Source: Alphaproteobacteria bacterium
Lineage (GTDB): Bacteria; Pseudomonadota; Alphaproteobacteria; Reyranellales; Reyranellaceae
DNA length: 64,000 nucleotides
Direction of reading: 5' to 3'
Assembly (NCBI GenBank): GCA_016869975.1
Contig: VGCZ01000009.1
Coordinates: 1 to 64,000 of the forward strand
The position numbers and the translations under genes were made by a program. Under the pieces are notes generated by a model that saw only the letters and a program-made list of their open reading frames with translations, was not told the DNA's origin and ran no database searches. Positions 1 to 16,339 of the stretch are shown piece by piece. Within the stretch, counting starts at the first letter, position 1. Every line of letters begins with the position of its first letter.

Positions 1-1687
1 AGTCAGGGTGGATTTCGCTGTCCGAGTAAAAGCAGCGGCCAGCCTGTTCTTTCCACAGCTCGAAGCGCAGCAGGTCCTCGGCGTTCGTGGCTTCGCGTCC
101 CACCGCATCCCGATACTCTTCGCGAAGGCGATCTTTCGCCTTGTTGCGTCGCTCGATTCCGCTCGTGATCTTGTCGCGCTCTTCCTTGCTCTTGCCGACG
201 TCGCGCGCCAGCTCGATATGCATGGCACCCGGCAGCCCGTATTCGCGCACGATCGCGCGAACCTGCTTTAGGGCCTCGCTGAGCGCCTTGCGGGCGACGG
301 GATTGTTGATCGTGGAAAGATCGGTCTCGGGGCGACGCGTATGGTCATAGCCCACTGCCTTGCAGGCATCCGAATAGACGAGCCCTCGCATGAGATGGGG
401 TAGTATTTTGCGCGCAGCCTTGGACGAAATATGTCCGGCGCCTTTAAAAGCGGCGAAGTCACCGTCGATAACGCCCTTCATCATCGCTTCCAGCACCAAC
501 GGCTCGAAGCCGATCTCGTTCAACCCTGCCTGAATCGACTCGGGCGCCTCGCGGAAGGTGATGATCGCGGCGGCGCGGTCGATCTTGTCAGGCTGGTCCA
601 CAAGCGTCTTCCAGGCATTGCCCAGCACATTGCGGAATGCCTTGGTTCCGGCGGCTTGGTCGCGTGAGCGCGACGCGATCTCGCGTTTGCCCTCCTCCTC
701 GCGAGGCACATCGAACGAGTTCCCGTCGTCGAGCTTCAGTAGCCTGCGTAGCCGCTTGTAAGTCAGCTTGACTCCCGGCGCACCGAAGTCGGCCATCGCG
801 AGGGAGATTTCTTCGGCCGTCAGTGTCCTTTCGCTCCCTTCGGAGCGGACGCTCAGCGTGCATAACCGCGACGCAAGCCGGAACCTTTCGAACGATGGGC
901 TGTGCTTTGCTGCGCGGCGCTCGTCCGGCTCGAATGGGCAGAACCCGACCCGGTCGTCGCTGTCCTGCAACGGCCGTTGAAAGAACGCCGTCTCGATGAA
1001 CTGGCGCTGCAGGTCGGGATTCGCGATGGCGTTCCCCATCCGCCGCTGGCGATCGAATATCAAAGCGACTTCGCGCTCCAGATCGTCGCGCAAGACGGAG
1101 CGATCGAAATTGCCGTCGCGATTGCGCTTACGCACGGCGTAGGTCGCATCCTTGGCGAACATCTCGCCGACTGTGCGCCACTCATTCAGGTGCTCGCGCG
1201 TCTTCTCGATCGCGCCGAGCATCTTGGAAGACTCCTCGTCGGAGTTCTTGCCTCGGTCGCGTTTGCTATTCGACTTGAAGCCGCGATGCTTTGCGATATG
1301 ACCTAAGGCCACCGCCAACTCCTGCCCGTTAAGGGGGCGGTCCAGCGCCTCGACTCGCAATGTCCAGGGATTCAGGCCCACGGCCAGCGCTTTCTTTAGA
1401 TCGTCGATCAGCAGTCCGTGAACCTTGAACAGGGCCCGAACCCCGTTCATCCTCTGTCTCCGTCGCTTGAGTACGCGGCGTATCAGTCGATTCTGCCGCC
1501 TGATCTGATTCGTCGGTGTACGCTCCTTGGCAGTTTCCGGCGCATCGAAGCAGCGAACGCCCATTGCGACGATGCGGCCGTCGCCGCTGTCGACGTTCTC
1601 AATCATCGCCCAGCCGCACGAGGCGATGCCGAGATCGATGCCCAGCGTCAGACCTTCCCGCAATACGGGTTCGAACGATGCCGTCAT
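1..1687 (-). CDS. cas9: Cas9 endonuclease, type II-C-like (N-terminal 562 residues; 3' end beyond window)
   Basis: RNA-guided DNA endonuclease of a type II CRISPR system, cut by the left edge. The frame is open from ATG 1687 to base 2 with no stop. Visible domains in order: RuvC-I (LTLGIDLGIASCGW, catalytic Asp18), an Arg-rich bridge helix at about 61-80 (QIRRQNRLIRRVLKRRRQRM), a REC-type region with KHRGFKSNS near 133, RuvC-II (MHIELARD, Glu492), then the opening of HNH (GRCFYSDSEIHPD at the edge). The Asp18-Glu492 spacing matches compact type II-C enzymes such as Neisseria Cas9 (Asp16, Glu504; about 1,080 residues). The HNH His and RuvC-III are off the window. A GGGGA motif lies six bases before ATG. 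Base composition is less GC-rich than neighbours, suggesting transfer. Subtype II-C is inferred from size and spacing; cas1 and cas2 are not visible. Confidence 0.93.
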   Translation of the reverse strand, partial: MTASFEPVLREGLTLGIDLGIASCGWAMIENVDSGDGRIVAMGVRCFDAPETAKERTPTNQIRRQNRLIRRVLKRRRQRMNGVRALFKVHGLLIDDLKKALAVGLNPWTLRVEALDRPLNGQELAVALGHIAKHRGFKSNSKRDRGKNSDEESSKMLGAIEKTREHLNEWRTVGEMFAKDATYAVRKRNRDGNFDRSVLRDDLEREVALIFDRQRRMGNAIANPDLQRQFIETAFFQRPLQDSDDRVGFCPFEPDERRAAKHSPSFERFRLASRLCTLSVRSEGSERTLTAEEISLAMADFGAPGVKLTYKRLRRLLKLDDGNSFDVPREEEGKREIASRSRDQAAGTKAFRNVLGNAWKTLVDQPDKIDRAAAIITFREAPESIQAGLNEIGFEPLVLEAMMKGVIDGDFAAFKGAGHISSKAARKILPHLMRGLVYSDACKAVGYDHTRRPETDLSTINNPVARKALSEALKQVRAIVREYGLPGAMHIELARDVGKSKEERDKITSGIERRNKAKDRLREEYRDAVGREATNAEDLLRFELWKEQAGRCFYSDSEIHPD

Positions 1688-1713: not shown

Positions 1714-1742
1714 TTGACGCAGACGGGCGGCAGTGCTCAAGT
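1714..1742 (+). promoter_or_regulatory. Candidate sigma-70-type promoter for the small RNA divergent from cas9
   Basis: TTGACG (1714-1719) and TCAAGT (1737-1742) are separated by 17 bases. The -35 is good and the -10 weak. The segment is nearly symmetric: on the minus strand TTGAGC and TCAAGA occupy the same bases with the same spacing and point at cas9. Overlapping face-to-face promoters for cas9 and the RNA are therefore possible. The start of transcription would fall near 1749. Confidence 0.35.
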
Positions 1743-1748
1743 ATCGAT

Positions 1749-1839
1749 GGGAAGTCGGTTGGGAAACCACGGTAAAGTGGTGATCCACTGAAGGTTCAAA
1801 CCCCGGACGCGGAAACGCGCTCCGGGGTTTTCCTCTTTT
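1749..1839 (+). ncRNA. Candidate tracrRNA (short, terminator-ended, no ORF, divergent from cas9)
   Basis: A stretch directly upstream of cas9 and divergent from it has the layout of a tracrRNA gene: a possible promoter at 1714-1742, no credible ORF, several small stem-loops and a strong intrinsic terminator. Visible helices are GGTT/AACC (1757-1768), CCAC/GTGG (1767-1780) or the alternative GTGG/CCAC (1777-1788), then the terminal hairpin 1801-1827. If correct, the anti-repeat should lie in about 1749-1790 and the CRISPR repeat should contain sequence complementary to it. Repeat and array are outside the window, so the pairing cannot be tested here. It could instead be an unrelated small RNA. 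Confidence 0.5.
1801..1839 (+). terminator. Strong Rho-independent terminator with GAAA tetraloop
   Basis: CCCCGGA (1801-1807) pairs with TCCGGGG (1821-1827). Inside, CGCG (1808-1811) pairs with CGCG (1816-1819) around a GAAA loop, leaving one bulged C. The tract TTTTCCTCTTTT follows at 1828-1839. The T-run is on the plus strand only, so it ends a plus-strand transcript starting between cas9 and this point. Confidence 0.85.
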
Positions 1840-2012
1840 ATGGTTGCATTAGGCGGAAGCGGTTGCAGTGCCCATTGCTGTATCTCGGGATCGCCGATGG
1901 TCTGCGGCGCGGCGTATGGTATGCTTTCCAGCCTTTCCCCGAACCCGCAAGAAGCGAGCTTGAGCAATCTGGTCTGTGGGCCTGCAGCCTGACGCTAGAA
2001 GCTGCTTTTTCA

Positions 2013-2416: not shown

Positions 2417-2492
2417 TGGCGCCCCCTACGGGATTCGAACCCGTGTTTCAGCCTTGAGAGGGCCGCGTCCTGGGCCTCTAGACGAAGGGGGC
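2417..2492 (-). tRNA. tRNA-Glu (anticodon CTC)
   Basis: A 76-base cloverleaf reads 5'-to-3' on the minus strand. The acceptor stem GCCCCCT pairs with AGGGGGC, followed by discriminator G and an encoded CCA. The D-arm follows, then the anticodon stem CGGCC/GGCTG with loop CTCTCAA (anticodon CTC), and the T-arm with GTTCGAATC. The layout matches bacterial tRNA-Glu. Its 3' end faces the Cas9 region, the usual side for integrase-driven island insertion. Confidence 0.95.
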
Positions 2493-2520
2493 GGAGGCCG
2501 GAGCCGGGCTTTTAGGCCAT

Positions 2521-2787
2521 GAATCCCTGCCGCGCAACCCCGGTCCGTCGGACAAGCTGTTCCGCGAGGAGGGCGAATTCGAGGCTGATCTCGAGGAGAC
2601 GATTGATTTCCTGCGCCGCCAGGTGCCGGCCGATCCGGCGTAGCTCCTGCTGGTGCCCGGTGATCCAGAGTACGCCGAGAAGGAGAACCGCCTGCGCGAT
2701 CGCATCCCGGTCCCGCGCATGCTGGTCGACCAGATCCGCGACGTCTGCCGTAACAGCAATGCGGCGTATCTGCTGGAGGGCGGTTGA
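2521..2787 (+). pseudogene. C-terminal remnant of a malate/L-lactate (Ldh-family) dehydrogenase
   Basis: The plus-strand frame ending TGA 2785-2787 reads like the C-terminus of Ldh-family oxidoreductases (FEADLEETIDFLRR, VPADPA, LLLVPGDPEYAEKENRLR, IPVPRML, NAAYLL). It has no N-terminal catalytic part and is broken by an in-frame TAG at 2641-2643, exactly between VPADPA and LLLVPGDPE. It starts 28 bases from tRNA-Glu, so the 5' part was lost, possibly by an insertion or deletion at the tRNA. Recognition is from the family pattern, not a search. Confidence 0.68.
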
Positions 2788-15482: not shown

Positions 15483-16339
15483 TCCGCTCCTACCTCTTCG
15501 TTCCGGGCGACGACCTCAAGAAGCTCGATCGCTCCAAGACCTCGCCGGCCGACGCGCTGATCTATGACCTTGAGGATTCGGTCGGACCGGAGCGCAAGGA
15601 GGCAGCGCGCGTCATCGTGCGCGACCACATCCGGGCGCTGGGCGCCGGCGGTCACCACAAGGTCGTGCGCGTCAACAGCTTCCCGACGGGGCTGACCGCC
15701 GGCGACCTCGCGGTGGTGATGCAGGCGGCACCCGATTCGATCCTGTTGCCGAAATGCGAGAGCCAGGCCGAGCTCGATCGGCTCGGCCACGTGCTCGACG
15801 CGCTCGAAGCGCGCGAGGGTATCGCGGCGGGCCGCACCAAGGTGCTGGCGCTGGTGACGGAAACGGCGCCGGCGGTGCTGGTGGCGGCCTCGACGCGGCT
15901 GTCGCATCCCAGGCTCACGGCGCTGACGTGGGGTGCGGAGGATCTGTCGGCCGATATCGGCGCGGTGGCGAAAGCCGGCCCCGACGGCGTGCTCGACGAC
16001 ACGTTCAAGTACGCCCGCGTCGTCTGTCTGCTGTCGGCCAGTGCCGCGGGCGTCACGCCGCTCGACACGGTCTACGCCGACTTCCGCGACCTCCAGGGCT
16101 TCGAGGCGGAGTGCGTCACGGCCAAGCGCATGGGCTTCCTGTCAAAAATGGCCATCCATCCGTCGCAGGTCGAACCGATCAACCGGATCTTCAGCCCCTC
16201 GCAGGCCGAGCTCGACTGGGCGCGCAAGGTGGTCGAAGCCTTCGCCAAGTCAGGAAACGGCGGCGTCACGCAGATGGATGGCAAGATGCTCGACAAACCC
16301 CATCTGAAGCTGGCGCAAAGGCTGTTGGGTACGGCATAA
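15479..16339 (+). CDS. CitE-like HpcH/HpaI-family CoA lyase
   Basis: Mg-dependent TIM-barrel C-C lyase of 286 residues. The start [37 protein letters not shown] (about 29-46), VRVNSF, the metal-site Glu in LVTETAPAV and [12 protein letters not shown] are CitE-family marks, as is the C-terminal [13 protein letters not shown]. It should cleave malyl-, citramalyl- or hydroxymethyl-type CoA esters. Coupling to a MaoC hydratase by a four-base overlap parallels hydratase plus citramalyl-CoA lyase in itaconate degradation, but no CoA transferase is next to it. Confidence 0.9.

What the first reader, a model, noticed from the sequence alone, without database searches (positions are those of the whole stretch)
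1..1687. Unlisted type II-C-like Cas9 gene running off the left edge
The minus strand is open through 562 codons with all N-terminal Cas9 marks: RuvC-I Asp18, Arg-rich bridge helix, RuvC-II Glu492 and the start of HNH. Because the gene is truncated by the window it is easily missed. Its host is a chromosome rich in catabolic genes with no other defence genes nearby. Both visible catalytic residues are intact, so it is not obviously dead. The REC region between 145 and 470 looks divergent.
Basis: partly seen in the sequence, partly recalled or inferred. Interest (0 to 1): 0.85.

Follow-up and report, generated by a model that had tools for sequence, protein, structure and literature searches.

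The report
Ordinary type II-C Cas9, contig-truncated
The left edge of the window holds the first half of a normal bacterial CRISPR Cas9 gene plus its guide-helper RNA; it looks intact but is cut by the end of the assembled contig, and close complete relatives exist in sister species, so it is an ordinary find.

Summary
Minus strand 1687..2 is an open 562-codon Cas9 N-terminal half (TIGR01865 E=1e-108), with RuvC-I Asp18, bridge helix, RuvC-II Glu492 and the start of HNH. The cut is the end of the assembled contig (G000:C9), not just of the window. The rest of cas9, cas1, cas2 and CRISPR repeats were not found in the assembly.

Three related genomes carry the complete locus: divergent tracrRNA, cas9 (1019-1023 aa, HNH and RuvC-III motifs present), cas1, cas2 and an array of 36-nt repeats. 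The visible half is 78-89% identical to theirs, with dN/dS about 0.10-0.13, and matches the sister species through its last codon.

The REC region is not unusually divergent. In two sister species the same tRNA-Glu lies near pca genes without cas9; in this genome the pca-side contig ends in a multi-copy IS-like sequence, which explains the gap on that side. Best reading: a standard, probably active type II-C CRISPR-Cas9 locus, probably acquired horizontally. EHCas9 is a published system with the same layout. Low novelty.

The parts
2..1687 (-). N-terminal 562 codons of cas9 (type II-C), truncated at the contig end; RuvC-I D18, bridge helix, REC, RuvC-II E492, start of HNH
1714..1742 (+). putative tracrRNA promoter: TTGACG - 17 nt - TCAAGT, kept at the same spacing in G003, G020 and L001 (L001 has TTGACC); the second hexamer is a weak -10 match
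   Evidence: alignment A1; the simple consensus scan did not call it, so inferred
1748..1845 (+). tracrRNA gene: anti-repeat (about 1747-1773), a small hairpin (about 1776-1789), then a G+C-rich terminator-like hairpin (about 1798-1831)
   Evidence: 25 of the first 27 repeat positions matched, duplex energy -58.6 kcal/mol; conserved in five relatives; fold z = -3.7; 5 pairs with two-sided changes, but covariation term not favourable
2417..2492 (-). tRNA-Glu (CTC) next to the CRISPR-cas locus; the same tRNA lies near pca genes without cas9 in sister species G001 and G003

Best explanation
The feature is the 5' half of a standard type II-C cas9 with its divergently transcribed tracrRNA, part of a complete CRISPR-Cas9 locus (tracrRNA - cas9 - cas1 - cas2 - array) whose remainder is missing from the assembly. 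Inferred mechanism: the array is transcribed towards cas2, opposite to the cas genes; each repeat pairs with the tracrRNA anti-repeat; Cas9 with this dual RNA cuts matching phage or plasmid DNA next to a PAM using RuvC and HNH; Cas1-Cas2 add spacers. Shown: the gene half, its catalytic residues D18 and E492, purifying selection, the tracrRNA sequence, and the full locus in three relatives. Inferred: that the missing half is intact in this genome, expression, and activity.
For: Cas9 profile matches. Complete orthologous loci in L001 (78% identity over the aligned part), G003 (89%) and G020 (79%), with Cas1 of the type II family (TIGR03639) and Cas2 (TIGR01573) identified in L001, and 5 (contig end), 27 and 15 repeats. 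dN/dS 0.10-0.13. tracrRNA anti-repeat in the window. Flank analysis: the pca genes that lie near this tRNA-Glu in G001 and G003 are on G000 contig C69, which ends in a multi-copy IS-like sequence, so the gap has a plain assembly cause on that side. cas9 dS to G003 is 0.62 against 0.26-0.36 for four neighbour genes, and the G003 locus lies elsewhere in its genome, consistent with horizontal acquisition.
Against: The C-terminal half, cas1, cas2 and array were not found in the 4.84-Mb, nominally 100% complete assembly; why contig C9 stops inside a single-copy gene is not explained by the bases visible there. An IS insertion or deletion just beyond codon 562 cannot be excluded.
Confidence: 0.88

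Rival explanations
1. The locus is a decayed remnant: cas9 is truncated after about codon 562 (for example by an IS), and cas1, cas2 and the array are lost.
For: None of the missing parts was found in the assembly; an IS-like element lies at the end of the probable neighbouring contig C69.
Against: The sequence matches the intact G003 gene through the last complete codon of the contig, with no foreign sequence at the edge; dN/dS about 0.1 and a preserved tracrRNA give no sign of decay.
Confidence: 0.1
2. It is an IscB or other RuvC/HNH nuclease rather than Cas9.
For: Only that IscB shares the RuvC and HNH domains.
Against: A full REC lobe, 562 aa before HNH is complete, best matches all Cas9, and a cognate tracrRNA.
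Confidence: 0.01

Closest known systems
Cas9 loci of G003, G020 and Enhydrobacter sp. MAG TGS_PRO9 (L001)
   Same: Orthologous cas9 (78-89% identity over the visible half), same tracrRNA layout; the three share one identical 36-nt repeat to which the window's anti-repeat fits
   Different: They are complete, with cas1, cas2 and array; G003 and L001 sit at other genomic sites
EHCas9 system, type II-C clade IX (PMC10281378)
   Same: Same gene order, tracrRNA gene of about 100 bp upstream of cas9, 36-bp repeats, Cas9 of 1070 aa whose closest homologues are alphaproteobacterial; reported to cut DNA with an NGG PAM
   Different: No direct sequence comparison was made here; PAM of the window's Cas9 unknown
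Tistrella mobilis plasmid-borne Cas9 (NC_017958)
   Same: 46% identity over 98% of the query
   Different: More distant; the record is not annotated in the collection
Solved Cas9 structures 8jtj, 9ar4 and 6jdv
   Same: Match over nearly the whole visible half, E=3e-84 to 4e-68
   Different: Distant relatives

Membership tests
Cas9 (TIGR01865) | Curated profile score above cut-off | tested here: met
   365 bits against a cut-off of 100, on half the protein
Cas9 (TIGR01865) | RuvC-I Asp, bridge helix, RuvC-II Glu | tested here: met
   D18 and E492; alignment over 15-557 with 8jtj
Cas9 (TIGR01865) | HNH His and RuvC-III His/Asp | not testable with these tools
   Beyond the contig end; present in orthologues (VDHILPW and DDRHHALDAL motifs)
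Type II-C CRISPR-Cas | cas9, cas1, cas2 without csn2 or cas4 | tested here: inconclusive
   cas1 and cas2 not found in this assembly; orthologous loci in L001, G003 and G020 have cas9-cas1-cas2-array
Type II-C CRISPR-Cas | CRISPR array | tested here: inconclusive
   No repeat copy in the assembly other than the anti-repeat, but the flank where it would lie is unassembled; arrays present in L001, G003, G020 and L003
Type II CRISPR-Cas | tracrRNA with anti-repeat matching the cognate repeat | tested here: met
   25 of the first 27 repeat positions; the repeat is taken from orthologues, since the genome's own array is not assembled

The most novel reading that the evidence does not exclude
The genome really holds only this half-length Cas9 (RuvC-I/II plus REC, no complete HNH) with a conserved tracrRNA and no array, that is, an N-terminal Cas9 fragment kept for another role such as guided binding.
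Probability: 0.03. Interest if true: 0.6.

Novelty: new member of a known kind. Interest (0 to 1): 0.15.

Why it matters
It adds one more type II-C Cas9 of about 1020 aa with an identified tracrRNA, in a family where the system is patchy (a full-length orthologue in 2 of 60 relatives searched). Compact Cas9s are useful as editing tools, but the complete copies in the sister species are the ones to use.

Tried and rejected
Search for the missing half: Cas9, Cas1, Cas2 and the repeat in the own genome gave only the window copy. Pfam RuvC_III search was uninformative, as its controls also stayed silent. Rfam has no matching family for this tracrRNA above threshold. The simple promoter/terminator scan found nothing. 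First attempts at translating L001 used wrong coordinates. Literature search for Reyranella plus Cas9 (a guess at the host family) gave nothing relevant. IscB or another RuvC/HNH nuclease was rejected on the profile matches.

Full report
Observation. The window's minus strand is open from 1687 to 2 (562 codons, ATG start) and runs off the edge. It is Cas9: TIGR01865 365 bits, PADLOC Cas9 models, Pfam Cas9_a, and solved Cas9 structures over residues 15-557. The window is contig C9 of the held genome from base 1, so the gene is cut by the contig end.

Is the rest present? A complete orthologue used as query against the own genome finds only this half. Cas1 and Cas2 queries find nothing, and the repeat pattern finds only the anti-repeat at 1747-1772. 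These searches rest on orthologue queries and on an assembly with gaps.

Relatives. In L001, Cas1 scores best with the type II model TIGR03639 and Cas2 with TIGR01573; in G003 and G020 cas1 was read from the ORF lists, where the shorter cas2 fell below the length limit set. Of 60 relatives searched, two have a full-length orthologue; three more (G005, G009, G053) have only distant Cas9-like matches of about 33-38% identity. The visible half is 89%, 79% and 78% identical to G003, G020 and L001, with dN/dS of 0.097, 0.127 and 0.127, and agrees with G003 through the last codon before the edge.

Between cas9 and tRNA-Glu, on the plus strand, 1747-1773 is complementary to the relatives' repeat (25 of the first 27 positions; duplex -58.6 kcal/mol). 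It is followed by a short hairpin and a G+C-rich hairpin with a T-rich tail, ending near 1845. The segment is conserved in G003, G020, L001, L003 and L002 and folds better than shuffles (z = -3.7). Covariation support is weak: five pairs with two-sided changes but an unfavourable covariation term. A TTGACG-17-TCAAGT promoter is proposed from conservation only; the consensus scan did not list it. The repeat orientation implies that array and tracrRNA are transcribed in the same direction, opposite to the cas genes; the EHCas9 paper reasons likewise that array and tracrRNA share a direction (PMC10281378).

Genomic site. In G001 and G003, tRNA-Glu lies near pca (protocatechuate) genes and the EmrAB-type efflux genes, without cas9 in the stretch. 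In G000 the pca side is on contig C69, which departs from the sister species near 13.8 kb and ends at 15,775 in a sequence with exact copies on other contigs, apparently an insertion sequence. C69 and C9 are therefore probably neighbours across a gap, which would hold the rest of the locus; this is inferred from synteny, not shown. cas9 is more diverged from G003 (dS 0.62) than neighbouring genes (0.26-0.36), and the G003 locus is on another contig; this suggests horizontal acquisition rather than shared inheritance in place.

Verdict. Best supported: an ordinary, probably functional type II-C CRISPR-Cas9 locus interrupted by an assembly gap. The main rival, real truncation, is not excluded but has no positive sign at the contig edge. 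Neither activity nor PAM was tested. EHCas9 shows that a system of this layout can cut DNA (NGG PAM), but its sequence was not compared here.

Noticed in passing
L038:13860-15775 (G000:C69 end): Next to the pca genes this genome carries about 1.9 kb not matched in G001 and G003 at this place, with a phosphatase-like ORF (by eye) apparently interrupted by a multi-copy IS-like element at the contig end.
   Followed up: partly
window 2417-2553: The stretch beside tRNA-Glu is variable between sister species: about 1-3 kb of different sequence, and an opposite tRNA orientation relative to emrB in G003.
   Followed up: partly
L012, L013 (G005, G009): Two other genomes of the family have a more distant Cas9 lineage (about 34% identity; open frames of 1176 and 1036 aa).
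   Followed up: no
L017:5880-6341: The G003 array contains two pairs of adjacent identical spacers, i.e. recent unit duplications.
   Followed up: no
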